A DNA stretch of 64,000 nucleotides from Oscillatoriophycideae cyanobacterium NC_groundwater_1537_Pr4_S-0.65um_50_18 (GTDB lineage Bacteria > Cyanobacteriota > Cyanobacteriia > Elainellales > Elainellaceae). Positions 22,761 through 33,454 of this stretch are shown in pieces; the first letter of the stretch is position 1; the number at the start of each line of letters is the position of its first letter. The notes beneath the pieces are model-generated. The model worked only from the letters and a program-made list of their open reading frames with translations. It was not told the origin of the DNA and made no database searches. The DNA lies in NCBI GenBank assembly GCA_016208305.1, contig JACQYI010000071.1, forward strand, positions 62,001 through 126,000. Direction: 5' to 3'. The position numbers and the translations under genes are program-made.

Positions 22761-23456
22761 ATGCCTACAACAGAGATTAAATCTAGCAAAGCTCATCTAG
22801 CAACCCATCAGCCAAAGCCTGAGTCTCACGCCTGTTTTCAGACGCGTGCCCTTTTGTCTCTCTGGAGTCTGGAGAAGAAAGAGGGAAAAGCTGTTAGTGC
22901 AGGAAAGCTGAGCAAGCACAAAGCGCTTTTTGAAGAAATGGAAACGGCAGGGACGGTCAACATTACCCGCAACAGTAGATATCAATACCTCTCAATTTCA
23001 GATGAAGGCAAAAGTCAACTAATCAAAGGTCTAATGAGCGCTGAATTTAGCTTTGCTGGAACGGTGGTTAGCTCTAGAGAGTCGCTAGACGCTCTGGAAT
23101 TAGTGATAGGACAGAGTGCTGGGATTGCGGTATCTAACGGCAACGGCAATGCCGCAGGAGCAAAAGTGGTAGAGGCGATCGCTTCTTATGACGAATTTAA
23201 GTCTGTAGCGCTGGAGGTCTTCGATCAGCTAAATCGGGATTACAACATGGATAATCTCGTGCCCATTTATCGGATTCGGAGAGAAGTGGGCGATCGGTTG
23301 AGTCGGGCTGAATTCGATGAATGGCTGATGGAAATGCAAGCTCAAGATATTTGCCAGCTTATCGGTGGTGAAATGCCAGACATCACACCTGAGAAAGCCG
23401 AAGATTCTATCAAAACAGCATTGGGTGGCCTTCGCTACTACGTGAGACATCTGTAG
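22761..23456 (+). CDS. Winged-helix protein of a putative three-gene nuclease module
   Basis: 231 residues, not a family I can name. Residues about 25-90 look like a winged helix of MarR-like type (LSLWSLEKKEGKAVSAGKLS, then ISDEGKSQLIKGL). The middle is a Gly/Asn-rich linker (NGNGNAAGAKVVEAI). Residues about 150-231 look like a second winged helix: VPIYRIRREVGDRLSRAEFD, WLMEMQAQDICQLIGGEMPD, ending in GGLRYYVRHL. The next gene, an ATPase, begins 64 bases later in the same direction and a nuclease gene overlaps that one. A DNA-binding or adaptor role is likely; it might also repress the operon. One HIP1 site occurs in the gene. Confidence 0.6.
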   Translation: MPTTEIKSSKAHLATHQPKPESHACFQTRALLSLWSLEKKEGKAVSAGKLSKHKALFEEMETAGTVNITRNSRYQYLSISDEGKSQLIKGLMSAEFSFAGTVVSSRESLDALELVIGQSAGIAVSNGNGNAAGAKVVEAIASYDEFKSVALEVFDQLNRDYNMDNLVPIYRIRREVGDRLSRAEFDEWLMEMQAQDICQLIGGEMPDITPEKAEDSIKTALGGLRYYVRHL

Positions 23457-23520
23457 CTAATTTGCGTTCTCTATTCATCTCAATCAGGTTTATTAGCTTT
23501 TCACTATCTGTCGGCATATT

Positions 23521-25464
23521 ATGACTACTTCTGTAACATCCTCCCTCGAAGAAATCAACGCTGTTCTTCACGACCATAATCCCTTTGCTCAGCCTCCTTA
23601 CGTTAATGCCAATAATGTTTGGGGTAAAGGATTTCCAGATGTTGAGTTTCTGAATGCTCATGCTTCTGATGCCGTTTTTCGAGCATTGGAAGAGATTCGT
23701 TTAGGGCATTACTCCACGACATCTATTCTAATTACGGCTCAAGATGGAACTGGAAAGACCCACATCATTAGCCGAATTCGTCATCGTCTACAAGCCCAGG
23801 GCGGAGCTTTATTCGTTTTCGCTAACAAGTTTAATGATCTCAATCAGATTAAGCAGGGATTTCAGCAAATTTTAGCTGAGAGCTTGAGTAATATTGGCAG
23901 CCAAGGAGTTAAGCAGTGGCAAGAACTAGCTGCTGCAATGGCAAATGACGCTCTTAAGTTTGTCAGTGCAGATGCAAAACCCATTGCTGCCAAAGATTTT
24001 GTCAAGCGTATTGAAACTATTGATGATGAGGATAAAGTTCAGCGGTGGATTAATCAGTTAACTAAAGCTTTCTGTAAAACCAGATCTGTTCAAGACCCTG
24101 ATATTGTTCGAGCCATCTTTTGGACGCTTTCAGACGATGAAGCAGCTTTTGCGTCTAACTGGTTGGCAGGCAAAGCACTCGCTCAGTTCAAGGCTAATGA
24201 TTTAAGGTTGCCTGATCAAAAGCAGTCTTTTGATGCAACTCTCCAGATTTTGGCGCTCATTAGTGAGTACAACGAACTCGTCATCTGTTTTGACGAGCTT
24301 GATGTTCTTGATTTTGACGATCGTGGTCTGCATAAGTCACAAATCGTAGCGAGTCTTGTTAAAGAGCTATTTGAGAACCTCAAGCGAGGTGTTATCCTCA
24401 GTGTGTTGATGCCAGGTACATGGACGGATCGAATCAAAAAAGAATTGCCCGGAGGCGTTTCACAAAAAATGACTACTCAGGGTAATCCCTATGACTTGAG
24501 GTACATGGATGGAGATTCAGCGCTTGAACTAGTCGCCTTTTTCCTCAAAGAGTTCTACGAATCAAGATCGCTATGTCCACCTCATCAAGTTTATCCATTT
24601 GATGAGGGAGCGATCAGAGCAATTGGACGTGAGAAACCTACTGTTCGAGAAGTATTGCAGTGGTGTCGAGAAAACTGTAAGCCGACAGCTGAAATTGATG
24701 AGGATCTGTCAGTTGACAACGGTAAAAAATCATCGGTTTTACTCATCTCTGAAACTGATCCAGTGGAGATGGCTTTCATCAATGAATTGGATGAGGATAT
24801 TATTAATAGTTTAGATGACAATTATCTTCTGGCAGAAGCTTTATTGCTAGGCTTCCAGACCATAATTGGTGAGACAGTTGAGGGAGTGACTCTTGAAGAG
24901 GTTACTACGGGAGTCGGCAAAAAAGGAAAAAGGGATGATTATCTCAACTTCAAAATTCTAGGCGAAGAAGCAGGATATATCGTCAGCATTGGCGTTGCAG
25001 TTTTACAATACGATGGGGGACGAGCGCTTGGTGCGGGTCTACGAAGGTTAGTAGACGAGGAAGAGCGATTCGATCTCACTCGTGGATGTTTAGTTCGGTC
25101 AAAAAATAAGCCTATCAACAATTACTTCATCTCAACCTATCTTAATCCATTGATTGAAGAAGGCGGTGAGTTTGTTGAGCTTAACGAGAAGGAGATTAAG
25201 CCTCTCATTGCGCTTCGATCGGTTTACCAGAAGCGTGGATCAGACTATAAAATCACTGAAGAAGATATCACAAATTTCATTTCCAAGTACGGAGCAAAGT
25301 ACTGGTTAGGAATTCACAACCCCTTGCTTAAAGAAATCTTGAGCGATCCTTCTTATCAAATCCCTGAAGGAATTGAAGATGAGCCTGAATCTTTACCAGA
25401 AAATGTAGCTAACGACTTAGATTCAACAGAGACAGAAGATCTACAAGAGTTGATACATGTCTGA
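23521..25464 (+). CDS. ORC/Cdc6-like AAA-type ATPase of a putative defence module
   Basis: 647 residues. P-loop LITAQDGTGKTHIISRI (GTGKT at 76-80) and Walker B LVICFDELDVLD (about 253-264) mark an ORC/STAND-like NTPase; the region after Walker B (LMPGTWTDRIKKELPGG) fits a sensor-1 strand. Residues about 380-410 (EGAIRAIGREKPTVREVLQW) resemble a lid or winged-helix segment. The C-terminal 230 residues have mixed alpha/beta character with no motif I can assign, and end in an acidic tail. The gene overlaps the downstream nuclease gene by eight bases, suggesting translational coupling. It contains no GCGATCGC octamer in 1.9 kb, unlike most neighbours, which hints at recent transfer. Possible roles: clamp loader, translocase or switch for the nuclease. 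Confidence 0.7.
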   Translation: MTTSVTSSLEEINAVLHDHNPFAQPPYVNANNVWGKGFPDVEFLNAHASDAVFRALEEIRLGHYSTTSILITAQDGTGKTHIISRIRHRLQAQGGALFVFANKFNDLNQIKQGFQQILAESLSNIGSQGVKQWQELAAAMANDALKFVSADAKPIAAKDFVKRIETIDDEDKVQRWINQLTKAFCKTRSVQDPDIVRAIFWTLSDDEAAFASNWLAGKALAQFKANDLRLPDQKQSFDATLQILALISEYNELVICFDELDVLDFDDRGLHKSQIVASLVKELFENLKRGVILSVLMPGTWTDRIKKELPGGVSQKMTTQGNPYDLRYMDGDSALELVAFFLKEFYESRSLCPPHQVYPFDEGAIRAIGREKPTVREVLQWCRENCKPTAEIDEDLSVDNGKKSSVLLISETDPVEMAFINELDEDIINSLDDNYLLAEALLLGFQTIIGETVEGVTLEEVTTGVGKKGKRDDYLNFKILGEEAGYIVSIGVAVLQYDGGRALGAGLRRLVDEEERFDLTRGCLVRSKNKPINNYFISTYLNPLIEEGGEFVELNEKEIKPLIALRSVYQKRGSDYKITEEDITNFISKYGAKYWLGIHNPLLKEILSDPSYQIPEGIEDEPESLPENVANDLDSTETEDLQELIHV

Positions 25465-26965
25465 AGCAGTTTTACTTGACAGGATTTTATCTTTACCTGC
25501 TGTTGATATTGCAGCACTTTTGCAAGGGCAAGTTATAGCGGCTTTGCCTAATGTCTTTGTGCAAGAAGGATGGAAGTTTATGCTCTATCCTCACGTAGAA
25601 GCAGCAACTGCTCTACCCACTGAGCAGAAATACCGTTCGCACATTTTACCTTTAACTAGAGCAACGATCGCTTACAACCAATCTGAAACTGTGGCGATCG
25701 AAGCATGGGCAAGATGTGAGTATTGCAAGATGTTGACGGAAGTTGAACAGGTAGAAGCTCTGTCAAGTTTAAGTATTTGGACAAAAGAGGCGCTGAGAAA
25801 AGCTTTAGATCAAAGGCAACATTTATTTTTAGCTTTTCTCCGCGTCTATCGAATGCCCAAATTAATTAAAGTCGATCGTAGCGTTGTGGCACCTGAGAAA
25901 TTTGGTAAATTTGTGGGCTTACCTATTTTAGGTGAGCAGTTCAATAAGCCTTTCAAGATCACTCAGATCTTACCTGTTGTAAATGACGCTGTATTTAATC
26001 AACGCAGTCAACAGTTAAAAGAACTGCGTCCTCCAATGCATCCTGAACTTGAGGAATTACAAAGCGCGATCGCTCAACTCTCCCCATCTAGCCCTGCATC
26101 TCAAGCTCTCGACCATCAAATCAAAGTATTTCTTGGGTGGACTGATGATTCACCTAAAATTCAACCCGATCTAGATTCAGTTTGGATTAAAACGCTCGTC
26201 ACAAGTGGCAGCTCTAGCGATGGAGATTTGTTTGAAAAGATGGTTCGTAAAAGCTTGATTGAACTTGGTTTTTCTAATTCCAATCAAAATCCAAAAGCCA
26301 GCCTTGATCCTAAAGCGACAGGGGGTGCAGGTGGACTTGATGTATATTGTGAGGCTCCCTTTCCGCTGGTAGGAGAATGCAAGGCAAGCAAGTATGAAAA
26401 AGTACCTAACAGCGTATCTGCTCAACTTATTCATTTGGGAAATACTCATTTAGGAAAACAGAAATTTGATCAATCTATCAAAGTCATTTTCACACCTGGA
26501 ATATTGACAGAACCCGCCGAAAAAGCAGCTCTTGAAAATCAAATGAATGTGATTCATCCAGAAACTCTACAAAGGCTAGTTGAACTCAAGAAGAAGTATC
26601 CAGGCTCCATCAACCTGATTGATCTAAAGCCTTGCCTAGAATCAGCACCCTTCGGTGAAGATTCTGATCTCAAACTCCATAAATACATGGACAAAATAGA
26701 GCAAGGAATTAAAATTCGATCAGATCTGATTGAGTCAGTGAAGCATCTTACTAAACCTGGGAAAACTCAAATAGGAGTTGTAGAAATTAGCACCTGTTAC
26801 GATATCAAATTTGCTGAAAACTACAGCCATGAATTAGACAAAGAAACAGCTTATGACTTACTCAAAGAGCTTGCTTCGCCGCTGGTTGGCTGCTTAGGGC
26901 GAGTAGGAGCTAACAGCCTCAATAGCGATCGCTTCTATTTCCTACGTGACTTGCCGATCGCTTGA
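25457..26965 (+). CDS. DUF1802-like domain fused to a PD-(D/E)XK (Mrr-like) nuclease
   Basis: 502 residues. Residues about 35-140 resemble DUF1802, a cyanobacterial domain often found beside or within restriction-type proteins: KFMLYPHVEAA, then IEAWARCEYCKM, LSSLSIWTKEALR and FLAFLRVYRMPK. Residues about 250-350 show a restriction-endonuclease core: Glu260 in GDLFEKMVRKSL, Asp295 in GGAGGLDVYCEA and the Glu307-Cys-Lys309 triad in LVGECKASKY. The C-terminal 150 residues are unassigned. Start ATG at 25457 lies inside the end of the ATPase gene. DNA cleavage controlled by the ATPase is inferred. A single-strand or RNA substrate is possible too; methylase partners were not seen. Confidence 0.75.
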   Translation: MSEAVLLDRILSLPAVDIAALLQGQVIAALPNVFVQEGWKFMLYPHVEAATALPTEQKYRSHILPLTRATIAYNQSETVAIEAWARCEYCKMLTEVEQVEALSSLSIWTKEALRKALDQRQHLFLAFLRVYRMPKLIKVDRSVVAPEKFGKFVGLPILGEQFNKPFKITQILPVVNDAVFNQRSQQLKELRPPMHPELEELQSAIAQLSPSSPASQALDHQIKVFLGWTDDSPKIQPDLDSVWIKTLVTSGSSSDGDLFEKMVRKSLIELGFSNSNQNPKASLDPKATGGAGGLDVYCEAPFPLVGECKASKYEKVPNSVSAQLIHLGNTHLGKQKFDQSIKVIFTPGILTEPAEKAALENQMNVIHPETLQRLVELKKKYPGSINLIDLKPCLESAPFGEDSDLKLHKYMDKIEQGIKIRSDLIESVKHLTKPGKTQIGVVEISTCYDIKFAENYSHELDKETAYDLLKELASPLVGCLGRVGANSLNSDRFYFLRDLPIA

Positions 26966-31273: not shown

Positions 31274-33454
31274 ATGGTTAGAAAAATCCTAATCCTGACC
31301 GCAAATCCTAAAGATGCTGAAAGATTGCAGGTGCATAATGAGATACAAAGCATTCAAGACAAGCTCAGAGGAGATAGGTTAAGAAATCCCAAGAAACAGT
31401 GTCAATTTGAAATTGTTTTCAAATGTGCGCGACCGGGTACCTTATTGGACGATATCGAGGATGAAAAGCCAGAGATTATCCACTTTGGTGGGCATGGAAC
31501 TGAAGACGGGCTGATCCTTGAAAACGACAATGGAGCTTCTCATCGCGTTAGTAACGATGCCTTAAAAAGGCTATTTCGGCTTGTCGGAAATGATGTCAAG
31601 TGCGTACTTTTAAATTCTTGTTACTCAGAAACGCTTGCTGAATCTATTAGTGAACATGTCCCCTATGTTATTGGTATTCAAGGAGCCATATTAGACAAGA
31701 CAGCGATCGCATTTGCTAGCGGTTTTTATAAAGCGTTAGGTGATGGCAAGACCATCGAATCTGCGTTTGAGCGAGGCAGTGTAGCGGCTCATTTTTTCAA
31801 TAAAAATGAAGTTATAGAGTTGTTCAAACAAAAACCACTCAACGGTTTTGAAAAATTTTGGCACAGTGCGCAGCATTCTATCTTCGGAACTTTAGCTATC
31901 GTAGGCAATCGAATAGGACAACGCGTTCTGTTTCTAACGGGGCTGATCGGCATTGGGGTTTCGCTAGCGCTTGTACTGAGCATTGTGAATCAAGGATTAA
32001 ACTCCCAGGCTGTATCCGAGGCTCTTTGTAGCGATCAAGTAGGACAGGCTGCGGCACAAGCGACTGACATTGTTCCATCTTCTCAAGAAAAAGGACTCAT
32101 CAGTAGTGGAGAAACGGTACTCCTAACCTATCGAGCAAACGCCGATCTTATCGAAAAAGGGGCTGCTGCTTTTAGACAAGCAGAGCAAGGAGATCAAAAT
32201 TATGAGTCTGCAATTTCCCTTTTTAGAGAAGCTATTAAGAAAGATAAAAGTAATCCAGAAGCCTACATTTATCTGAACAATGCGATCGCGCGAAATCAAT
32301 CAAAAGCGCAAGCTCGCAAGCCCTATATTTTGGTAGCCGCAATCCCTGCAAGTAGTGATACTCGAAGAAATCGAGCTGAGGAAATGCTGCGTGGAATCGT
32401 AGATGCTCAGGCTTGTTTTAATGACATAGCTCAGAAGAGTTGCTCTGATAATCCCAAAGAATATCTGTTAGAAGTCAAGCTGGTCGATGATGCAAATGAT
32501 CCTGAAGAAATTGTCCCTAAAGTTGCTAGAGAGATTGCCCAAAACAAAGATGTTGTGGGGGTGATTGGGCATTTCTCCAGTAACTCAACTAAGATTGCCC
32601 TCCCTATCTATGAACGGTACAGATTAGGCGTTATTTCTCCGACAAGTACCAGCTCGGATTTGCAAAGCGAGTTCTTTTTCAGAACGACGGTTTCTAGTCA
32701 AGTTTATGGAAAAAAGATTGTTGATCAAATACGAAAATATAACGTCAAGCAGGTGATCGGTTTTATTGACCCTCTGGACGATTATAGTCGTAACCAATGG
32801 AGTGAAGTTGAGCAGCTTCTCCGAGCAGACGGAATCCGTGCTGACGCAATTGAGCTAAGCGATCCAACCGCAGAACAGGAAATCGATCGCCAATCCAATG
32901 CGGATCATGCGTATGTCTTGATTCCCCCTTCAACCCGTACAGGCAAGTTCGCATCTGATGCTGAGATTTTTCAGAGATCTGCCAGAATTGCCGAAAAGCT
33001 CTCACAGAAGCGTGGCAGTCTTTTCATCGGAGGCAGCACTTTATACTCTTCCACCACCCTAACGCCAAACGGTTCAGCGTTTGAAAGCATGATCTTGATC
33101 GCGCCTTGGTTCGCTGGCTCCTCTGTTGAGACGGAGGACTATGCCAAGGTAGCCGCAGAGAAGTGGGGAGGTCAAGTCAACTGGGTCACTGCCAATAGCT
33201 ATGATGCTGCCCAAGCCTTCACGAGCGCTCTGTCCTCAGTTGACGAAACGCTAAACAGAGATGAATTGCGTGGAGATATTATTAATAGACTCAAAGCAGT
33301 AAAACTCTCCTCACCCCGCACATCGGGAACTCCACTTCAATTCAACGACGAACGTGAACCTATAAAAGAACCTCTTTTAGTTAGAGTCGTGCGAGGTAGA
33401 GATTGTTCACCCGTCAGAGAAGGCTACGTCTTTCAATTGCTTCCTGACTCATAA
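31274..33454 (+). CDS. CHAT protease - membrane helix - periplasmic receptor-ligand-binding protein
   Basis: 726 residues with an unusual order. Residues 1-200 are a CHAT (caspase-like) protease with EIIHFGGHGTED (His74) and CVLLNSCYSETL (Cys116). A single membrane helix follows at about 218-238 (RVLFLTGLIGIGVSLALVLS). Residues about 275-330 include one TPR-like pair (NYESAISLFREAIKKD). Residues about 345-726 form a type 1 periplasmic binding fold of the Leu/Ile/Val-receptor kind: YILVAAIPASSD, VVGVIGHFSSNSTKIA, VISPTSTSSDLQ and VTANSYDAAQAF. The protease would be cytoplasmic and the receptor periplasmic, suggesting ligand-controlled proteolysis across the membrane. No operon partner is visible. 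ATG at 31274. Confidence 0.85.
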   Translation: MVRKILILTANPKDAERLQVHNEIQSIQDKLRGDRLRNPKKQCQFEIVFKCARPGTLLDDIEDEKPEIIHFGGHGTEDGLILENDNGASHRVSNDALKRLFRLVGNDVKCVLLNSCYSETLAESISEHVPYVIGIQGAILDKTAIAFASGFYKALGDGKTIESAFERGSVAAHFFNKNEVIELFKQKPLNGFEKFWHSAQHSIFGTLAIVGNRIGQRVLFLTGLIGIGVSLALVLSIVNQGLNSQAVSEALCSDQVGQAAAQATDIVPSSQEKGLISSGETVLLTYRANADLIEKGAAAFRQAEQGDQNYESAISLFREAIKKDKSNPEAYIYLNNAIARNQSKAQARKPYILVAAIPASSDTRRNRAEEMLRGIVDAQACFNDIAQKSCSDNPKEYLLEVKLVDDANDPEEIVPKVAREIAQNKDVVGVIGHFSSNSTKIALPIYERYRLGVISPTSTSSDLQSEFFFRTTVSSQVYGKKIVDQIRKYNVKQVIGFIDPLDDYSRNQWSEVEQLLRADGIRADAIELSDPTAEQEIDRQSNADHAYVLIPPSTRTGKFASDAEIFQRSARIAEKLSQKRGSLFIGGSTLYSSTTLTPNGSAFESMILIAPWFAGSSVETEDYAKVAAEKWGGQVNWVTANSYDAAQAFTSALSSVDETLNRDELRGDIINRLKAVKLSSPRTSGTPLQFNDEREPIKEPLLVRVVRGRDCSPVREGYVFQLLPDS

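What the first reader, a model, noticed from the sequence alone, without database searches (positions are those of the whole stretch)
22761..26965. Uncharacterised three-gene module: winged-helix protein, ORC-like ATPase, DUF1802-PD-(D/E)XK nuclease
Seen: three same-direction genes, 64-base gap then an eight-base overlap; P-loop GTGKT and Walker B FDEL in the middle gene; Glu260, Asp295 and Glu307-x-Lys309 nuclease core in the last, fused to a DUF1802-like N-terminus. The ATPase gene has no GCGATCGC site in 1.9 kb and looks A/T-richer than its neighbours. Known: regulator-ATPase-nuclease sets are typical of phage and plasmid defence. Inference: this is a compact defence or mobile-DNA restriction system that I cannot match to a named type; there is no methylase, helicase or SMC beside it.
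Basis: partly seen in the sequence, partly recalled or inferred. Interest (0 to 1): 0.82.

Follow-up and report, generated by a model that had tools for sequence, protein, structure and literature searches.

The report
Cyanobacterial nuclease operon with swappable cutter
This is a conserved three-gene operon of cyanobacteria, probably a system that cuts invading DNA with the help of an ATP-driven partner, and related strains keep the same operon in the same place while exchanging the cutting domain of the nuclease for a very different one.

Summary
The three genes are real and form a conserved operon. Of 386 cyanobacterial genomes, 55 carry the nuclease at E<=1e-50; 53 have all three genes side by side, 2 are split by contig ends. 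Predicted structure makes the nuclease an ASCH domain (DUF1802), a FokI-like PD-(D/E)XK core and a winged helix; the first protein looks like two winged helices; the second is an AAA+ ATPase. No named system matched, but the gene set fits one sentence of a 2024 survey predicting a counter-invader role. New here, as far as my searches show: operons about 95% identical in the ATPase, at the same chromosomal site, can carry nuclease cores only 40-50% alike, exchanged between recurrent breakpoints and nearly independently of ATPase ancestry. Around the set defence genes were not enriched (25 genomes); in Nostocales it has one usual housekeeping site, where remnants also occur. Best reading: an ATP-dependent, methylase-less restriction system whose DNA-facing parts are diversified by recombination. 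No function was tested; repair and abortive infection remain possible.

The parts
22761..23456 (+). P1, 231 aa, predicted two winged-helix domains (residues about 23-92 and 143-230)
   Evidence: ORF; AF2 model pLDDT 80.9, pTM 0.48; weak fold matches to winged-helix proteins
22827..23036 (+). P1 N-terminal winged helix; this copy lacks 11 residues after residue 52 that >80% of members have
23187..23450 (+). P1 C-terminal winged helix (LVPIYRIRREVGDRLSR), shared with the cousin system and with cyanophage proteins
23521..25464 (+). P2, 647 aa AAA+ (AAA_16) ATPase, probably Orc/Cdc6-like
23740..23760 (+). P2 Walker A region (ending GTGKT); G76, G78, K79 in 111 of 111
24286..24303 (+). P2 Walker B (CFDELD); D258 in 110, E259 in 103 of 111
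24811..25365 (+). P2 C-terminal region, by analogy with PMC10853773 an inactive REase-like domain plus winged helix; not modelled here
   Evidence: inference from alignment and paper
25457..26965 (+). P3, 502 aa nuclease: ASCH-like + PD-(D/E)XK + winged helix
25478..25966 (+). P3 DUF1802 = ASCH/PUA-like domain (residues 8-170)
   Evidence: Foldseek's first six rows are Zymomonas ASCH entries (E 0.015-0.046); VIA Z 8.0-8.5 for those
26168..26701 (+). P3 nuclease core (residues 238-415), FokI/N.BspD6I-like; the exchanged cassette
26375..26383 (+). P3 catalytic E307-C-K309 (with E260 at 26234-26236 and D295 at 26339-26341)
26699..26962 (+). P3 C-terminal winged helix (residues 415-502), exchanged with or without the core

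Best explanation
An ATP-dependent, methylase-less restriction system of the chromosome. P2, an Orc/Cdc6-like AAA+ ATPase, and P1, a double winged-helix protein, would assemble on invading DNA and use ATP to position or license P3. P3 would read the DNA (base or modification) with its ASCH domain and cut with its FokI-like core, helped by its own winged helix. The DNA-facing parts (P3 core, P3 winged helix, P1 N-terminal winged helix) are exchanged by recombination at the resident site while the ATPase stays the same, so that lineages change specificity or escape inhibitors. Shown here: operon, conservation of catalytic residues, exchange. Predicted from models: folds. Inferred: assembly order, ATP licensing, what the ASCH domain reads, and that the target is invading DNA.
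For: Operon: 53 of 55 genomes and 76 of 80 loci; P2-P3 gap -4 to +10 in 52 of 75 loci. Active site invariant in 111 of 111 although cores are exchanged. Fold: ASCH-like, FokI-like core Z 14.5, winged helix Z 8.6. Exchange: L040 vs L130, P2 and the first ~210 residues of P3 88-99% identical at DNA level and both outer flanks mostly 89% or more, core 53-62%; core type changes 32 times on the P2 tree of 111 members against 36.6 for shuffled labels; breakpoints at 229-237 in 17 of 20 close pairs and at 417-420 (8) or 462-470 (11); correlation of identity with the ATPase domain: core 0.15, P3 tail 0.21, P1 N-domain 0.29, other P2 parts 0.79-0.93. Company: in one genome a PLD-SNF2 gene (DpdE, DrmD, HKD+Snf2-like) follows P1 in place of P2-P3, beside the same upstream neighbour as in trio loci; a homologous cousin operon carries exonuclease-nuclease-FtsK; published prediction of a counter-invader role.
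Against: No experiment. No enrichment of defence genes: PADLOC (E<=1e-8) lists 58 families among 149 neighbour proteins, each in 1 protein (Csx1, Cas12f, PD-T4-6 among them), and 117 families among 135 control proteins, up to 3 proteins each. P2 and P3 not found on plasmids or viral contigs, P3 not in phages. 33 of 36 Nostocales loci at one housekeeping site. The ASCH fold rests on an AF2 model (pTM 0.61), Z 8.0-8.5, no Foldseek E below 0.001; the tool warns that Z near 8 can be a common arrangement. P1 shows two, not three, winged helices, with weak matches. Only one of 57 genomes with P1 at E<=1e-20 shows the PLD-SNF2 replacement. Core type keeps a slight link to ancestry (7.4% of shuffles reach 32 or fewer). 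In 4 of the 51 refetched trio loci P2 is broken in frame.
Confidence: 0.55

Rival explanations
1. A resident DNA-repair or replication-linked nuclease: Orc/Cdc6-like loader plus structure-specific nuclease, kept at a fixed chromosomal locus.
For: Usual site by pgi/mdh/mutM in 33 of 36 Nostocales loci, housekeeping neighbours, no enrichment of defence genes; not on the plasmids searched; P3 not in phages.
Against: Patchy (55 of 386 genomes), remnants at the site in some genomes, P2 lower in GC than flanks in 68 of 68 loci, and exchange of the core, which I would not expect of a repair enzyme.
Confidence: 0.2
2. An abortive-infection type nuclease: P1-P2 sense infection and P3 degrades the cell's own DNA or RNA; cores are swapped to escape phage inhibitors, not to change recognition.
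For: Fits swapping of the catalytic core with constant active site; cyanophage genes carry the P1 C-domain, possible decoys.
Against: ASCH-like domain plus winged helix plus FokI-like core look like DNA-recognition modules; no toxicity data.
Confidence: 0.15
3. A relic of a Tn7-like element (TnsC-like ATPase, TnsA-like nuclease with winged helix) without transposase.
For: Nuclease core followed by a winged helix next to an AAA+ ATPase resembles TnsA-TnsC (recalled, not tested).
Against: No transposase among the nine neighbouring proteins scanned in the window; usual site in Nostocales; TnsA not among the 50 fold rows shown (inconclusive).
Confidence: 0.05

Closest known systems
Orc/Cdc6 + REase-ASCH + DndG-like triple winged-helix operon, predicted in Rakesh, Aravind and Krishnan 2024 (PMC10853773; abstract, passages and section 22 seen)
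   Same: Same three components: Orc/Cdc6-type ATPase, nuclease fused to ASCH, multi-winged-helix protein; predicted counter-invader role
   Different: One sentence, no name, no test; 'cyanobacteria' 0 times in its main text, DUF1802 not in it (library search); supplements not seen; it speaks of mobile neighbourhoods, here a usual site in Nostocales; no cassette exchange in the section read; the P1 model shows two winged helices, not three
Orc/Cdc6 + HerA/FtsK capture systems of the same paper (the cousin operon L065, L066, L069)
   Same: P1 and P2 homologous (hhalign 97.0% E 1.1e-10; 99.8% E 6.7e-29)
   Different: Third gene is 3'-5' exonuclease + PDDEXK_1 + FtsK (L066) in place of ASCH-nuclease-winged helix
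PUA-superfamily type IV restriction enzymes (EVE-HNH, SRA, winged-helix fusions; PMC7641849 and PMC11037411, passages)
   Same: Reader domain plus nuclease, no methylase beside it
   Different: Here a separate AAA+ ATPase and a winged-helix partner; that ASCH reads 6mA in DNA is predicted but not shown (PMC11037411)
McrBC (recalled)
   Same: AAA+ ATPase with a PD-(D/E)XK nuclease in a neighbouring gene
Type I restriction HsdS (recalled)
   Same: DNA-recognition parts swapped between constant flanks
   Different: Here the swapped part is the catalytic core itself with its winged helix

Membership tests
Orc/Cdc6 + REase-ASCH + multi-wHTH operon (PMC10853773) | REase fused to ASCH | tested here: met
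   P3 model: Zymomonas ASCH Z 8.0-8.5, N.BspD6I core Z 14.5; catalytic residues 111 of 111. The ASCH part is the weaker match
Orc/Cdc6 + REase-ASCH + multi-wHTH operon (PMC10853773) | Orc/Cdc6-clade AAA+ ATPase | tested here: inconclusive
   AAA+ shown (AAA_16); clade only hinted: the cousin ATPase hits orc1/cdc6 model TIGR02928 at E 6.4e-4, far below its cut-off
Orc/Cdc6 + REase-ASCH + multi-wHTH operon (PMC10853773) | DndG-like triple winged-helix protein | tested here: inconclusive
   Two winged helices in the P1 model; no hit to DndG/DptG models; fold matches all E>0.04
Orc/Cdc6 + REase-ASCH + multi-wHTH operon (PMC10853773) | Inactive REase between AAA+ and C-terminal winged helix of the ATPase | not tested
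   P2 not modelled (structure cap spent on P3 and P1); the only related test, P2 vs P3 by hhalign, finds nothing
DndFGH | DptF/G/H proteins with a HerA/FtsK translocase | tested here: not met
   No PADLOC or NCBIfam hit to them for P1-P3 at E<=1; no translocase gene in the operon
Named defence systems in PADLOC-DB 2.0.0 | Match to a system protein | tested here: not met
   Best Avs2 E 1.3e-3 over 68 residues of the P-loop only
Type I / II R-M | Cognate methyltransferase gene alongside | tested here: not met
   None among the window's nine neighbouring proteins scanned; the rest of the genome was not scanned for one
McrBC type IV | McrB GTPase and McrC | tested here: inconclusive
   No McrB/McrC family hit; distant homology not excluded
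Tn7-like TnsABC | DDE transposase next to TnsC | tested here: not met
   None among the nine neighbouring proteins scanned
ASCH modification reader | Binds a modified base | not testable with these tools
   needs a binding assay

The most novel reading that the evidence does not exclude
A restriction machine that keeps one motor and changes its blade: a constant AAA+ ATPase drives interchangeable nuclease-core and winged-helix cassettes that are swapped by recombination at a resident chromosomal slot, so that diversification acts on the catalytic domain itself; cyanophages answer with copies of the P1 docking domain, carried among their virion genes, as decoys.
Probability: 0.3. Interest if true: 0.82.

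Novelty: new variant of a known kind. Interest (0 to 1): 0.6.

Why it matters
If true, it gives a recurrent but unnamed cyanobacterial restriction system with concrete genes to test, suggests that DUF1802 is an ASCH-like reader, and adds a mode of arms-race evolution in which the catalytic core, not a separate recognition subunit, is exchanged. The natural swap pairs (about 95% identical ATPase, 40-50% identical core) are ready-made experiments on what the core decides: sequence, modification or resistance to phage inhibitors.

Tried and rejected
HIP1: the absence of GCGATCGC in P2 is within chance (P 0.096). The control list had 136 ORFs; one of 2,496 aa was left out. These batches were passed as 'alignments' only to have each member scanned; the tool lists 25 of 58 and 25 of 117 families and does not say how many proteins had any hit. 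Pfam of the neighbours shows the top 25 of 109 families.

PDB profile searches with the P1, P2, P3 alignments gave nothing significant. Homology between the P2 C-terminal region and the P3 nuclease: none by hhalign. P2 and P3 in viral contigs and plasmids, P3 in phages: none (P2 was not searched in the phage collection).

Literature: DUF1802 in 1 paper (listing, not relevant); Sll1717/DS41 (20 of 23 listed, none relevant by title); cyanobacterial defence (15 of 1,222 listed, none opened); ASCH/EVE and restriction (12 of 14 listed; four papers opened in passages or one section); TnsA-FokI-TnsC (0 papers); effector or domain swapping (two papers, listing only, not relevant); ASCH-Cdc6-REase-wHTH (5 listed). 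That cassette exchange is not in print rests only; most subscription journals, preprints and supplements were not searched.

Rows dropped for the swap analysis: of 126 trio loci plus the window, L049, L056, L067, L084 (P2 reading frame broken), L096 (several copies) and 6 with short P2 or P3 were left out (116 kept), then identical P2 proteins were merged (111). Core type was set by a motif rule for 109 and by eye for 7 of 116. The 20 breakpoint pairs come from 25 loci and are not independent. Partial correlation of the P1 N-domain with the P3 tail (0.46, permutation maximum 0.25) may be clade structure and is not used as proof of contact. The labels pgi, mdh and mutM come from Pfam for the neighbours and were given by eye to the three query proteins.
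Full report
What is there. Three genes on the + strand: P1 (22761-23456, 231 aa), P2 (23521-25464, 647 aa), P3 (25457-26965, 502 aa), 64 bases between P1 and P2 and an 8-base overlap of P2 and P3. Nine neighbouring proteins were scanned: histidine kinase, PhoH, KhpA, ribosomal protein S16 and one protein without a family on one side; DUF4336, carbonic anhydrase, ABC transporter and a CHAT/periplasmic-binding protein on the other. P2 is an AAA+ ATPase (AAA_16, E 5.6e-8), P3 begins with DUF1802 (E 7.6e-27), P1 has no family. PADLOC and NCBIfam give only weak matches, for P2 mainly Sll1717-family ATPase (1.3e-6, below its cut-off), DS41_1 antiphage protein (1.4e-4, below its cut-off) and Avs2 (1.3e-3).

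A conserved operon. Of 386 cyanobacterial genomes, 68 match P2, 65 match P3 and 71 match P1 at E<=1e-3; these counts include distant cousins and stand-alone DUF1802. P3 at E<=1e-50 leaves 55 genomes, one place each; 53 have P1-P2-P3 adjacent, in order, on one strand (51 refetched loci and L028, plus the window), and in 2 (G153, G155) contig ends split the set. In 4 of the 51 refetched loci P2 is broken into two reading frames. A scan of GTDB contigs found 228 loci with a P3 relative; of the best 80, all cyanobacteria by title, 76 hold the trio, 75 of 76 in the same order and strand. In those 75 the P1-P2 gap is 30-70 bases in 59 and the P2-P3 gap -4 to +10 in 52; 7 have a P2-P3 gap of 300 bases or more. 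Oscillatoria contigs L096 and L099 carry several copies.

What the proteins are. P3 was modelled with 73 homologues (pLDDT 84.9, pTM 0.61). Residues 8-170 match ASCH domains: Foldseek's first six rows are Zymomonas ASCH (E 0.015-0.046, probability 0.97-1.0) and VIA gives those Z 8.0-8.5, with two further proteins at 8.7. Residues 238-415 match the cleavage domains of N.BspD6I and FokI (Z 14.5 and 14.1, rmsd 2.8 and 2.7) and HindIII (11.2), residues 415-502 a winged helix of ORC (Z 8.6, rmsd 2.4). E260, D295, E307 and K309 are invariant in 111 of 111 members, as are G76, G78, K79 of P2; D258 is kept in 110 and E259 in 103 (Q in 8). P1's model (pLDDT 80.9, pTM 0.48) has winged-helix topology twice, with only weak fold matches, among them winged-helix regulators and ScpB. 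In this genome the P1 N-domain lacks 11 residues after residue 52 that most members have.

Cassette exchange. In 28 aligned P3 proteins two core types appeared, mixed among close relatives. For 111 members (62 and 49 of the two types) the type changes 32 times on the P2 tree and 30 times on the P1 tree; shuffled labels on the P2 tree give 36.6 on average (29-45 in 500 shuffles; 7.4% at 32 or fewer), so type and ATPase ancestry are nearly independent. Pairs with P2 about 95% identical can have cores 41-49% identical (L155/L114, L130/L040). At DNA level L040 and L130 have P2 and the first ~210 residues of P3 at 88-99% and both outer flanks mostly at 89% or more, while the core falls to 53-62%; other dips, partly gaps, lie in one stretch far upstream, in the start of P1 and just behind P3. 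In 20 pairs of different type with P2 at 85% or more (25 loci, not independent), the drop begins at residue 229-237 in 17 (204, 209, 209 in the rest) and ends at 417-420 in 8, 462-470 in 11 and 499 in 1, near predicted domain borders or the conserved ELSSPL motif. Identity in the core (r 0.15), the P3 tail (0.21) and the P1 N-domain (0.29) hardly follows identity in the ATPase domain, unlike other P2 parts (0.79-0.93) and the P1 end (0.83); the P3 linker (0.46), P1 C-domain (0.55) and ASCH (0.69) lie between. With an invariant active site this looks like exchange of working cassettes, not decay. That it serves specificity or escape is inference.

Where it sits. Among 149 neighbour proteins from 25 genomes PADLOC (E<=1e-8) lists 58 families, each in one protein; among 135 control proteins 117 families, up to three proteins each: no enrichment of defence genes. 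Of named loci over 18 kb, 33 of 36 Nostocales hold pgi, mdh or mutM homologues in the flanks fetched (up to about 10 kb), against 0 of 16 in other ranked orders and 0 of 4 without a ranked order. At that site a P3-tail fragment lies in G024 (E 1.3e-10), a P1 N-fragment plus P3 tail in G284 and a lone tail in G087, which has a whole trio elsewhere; in G101 and G334 nothing of the trio is found there. P2 is poorer in GC than its flanks in 68 of 68 loci and P3 in 63 of 68, P1 in 30 of 68.

Links to conflict. A cousin operon (L065, L066, L069) has homologues of P1 and P2 (hhalign 97.0% and 99.8%) and, in place of P3, a protein with 3'-5' exonuclease, PDDEXK_1 and FtsK domains (scanned in L066). 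In G129 P1 is followed by a PLD-SNF2 protein (DpdE, DrmD, HKD+Snf2-like) instead of P2-P3, with the same upstream neighbour as four trio loci of its family; this is one case of 57 genomes with P1 at E<=1e-20. The P1 C-domain occurs in six IMG/VR contigs at 42-46% identity, in Planktothrix phage PaV-LD among head genes, and inside a Mu-type portal polyprotein, while P3 has no relative in the viral and phage collections and P2 none in viral contigs. Whether these phage copies act on the system is unknown.

What is known. PMC10853773 (abstract, passages and section 22 seen) states that Orc/Cdc6 genes occur in operons with a REase-ASCH fusion and a DndG-like triple winged-helix protein and infers a role against invaders; it also describes systems like the cousin, with HerA/FtsK and a 3'-5' exonuclease. 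I take the trio to be of this class; the number of winged helices in P1, the ATPase clade and the inactive REase in P2 are not settled here. PMC7641849 and PMC11037411 (passages) support PUA-type domains as readers of modified bases, with the caution that reading of 6mA by ASCH is unproven; PMC12839542 (passages) concerns BREX relatives. No name, test or cassette exchange was found in the searches listed in Tried and rejected.

Verdict. Most likely an ATP-dependent restriction system with exchangeable DNA-facing modules; repair, abortive-infection and transposon-relic readings remain. Novelty lies in the exchange and the link to DUF1802, not in the gene set.

Noticed in passing
L206 4425-5711, L207 1446-2732, L208-L211; L212 4816-6294 (PaV-LD ORF078R): Cyanophage proteins with one or two copies of the P1 C-terminal winged-helix domain, mostly among virion genes (by eye; PaV-LD by annotation); possible decoys.
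   Followed up: partly
L197 8283-12083: A Mu-type portal polyprotein, probably of a prophage, contains the P1 C-domain.
   Followed up: partly
L196 9357-13576: P1 followed by a PLD-SNF2 helicase-nuclease gene in place of P2-P3, same upstream neighbour as trio loci.
   Followed up: partly
L065, L066, L069 (about 5.9-11.4 kb): Cousin operon: winged-helix protein, ATPase, and an exonuclease-PDDEXK-FtsK fusion whose translocase part matches SspH (L066, E 8.7e-70).
   Followed up: partly
L047, L048, L058, L068: A P2 paralogue (636 aa) without P1 or P3 beside it, FDRLD in place of FDELD in L047 and L058; in those two the next gene encodes a small vWA-like protein (read by eye).
   Followed up: no
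L096, L099: Oscillatoria genomes with several copies of the trio in tandem.
   Followed up: no
G000:C41:509989-510504: This genome also has a stand-alone DUF1802 protein (about 200 aa), as do 25 of 117 genomes searched (frames under 300 aa).
   Followed up: no
window 31274-33454: CHAT-like domain fused to a periplasmic-binding-protein domain.
   Followed up: no
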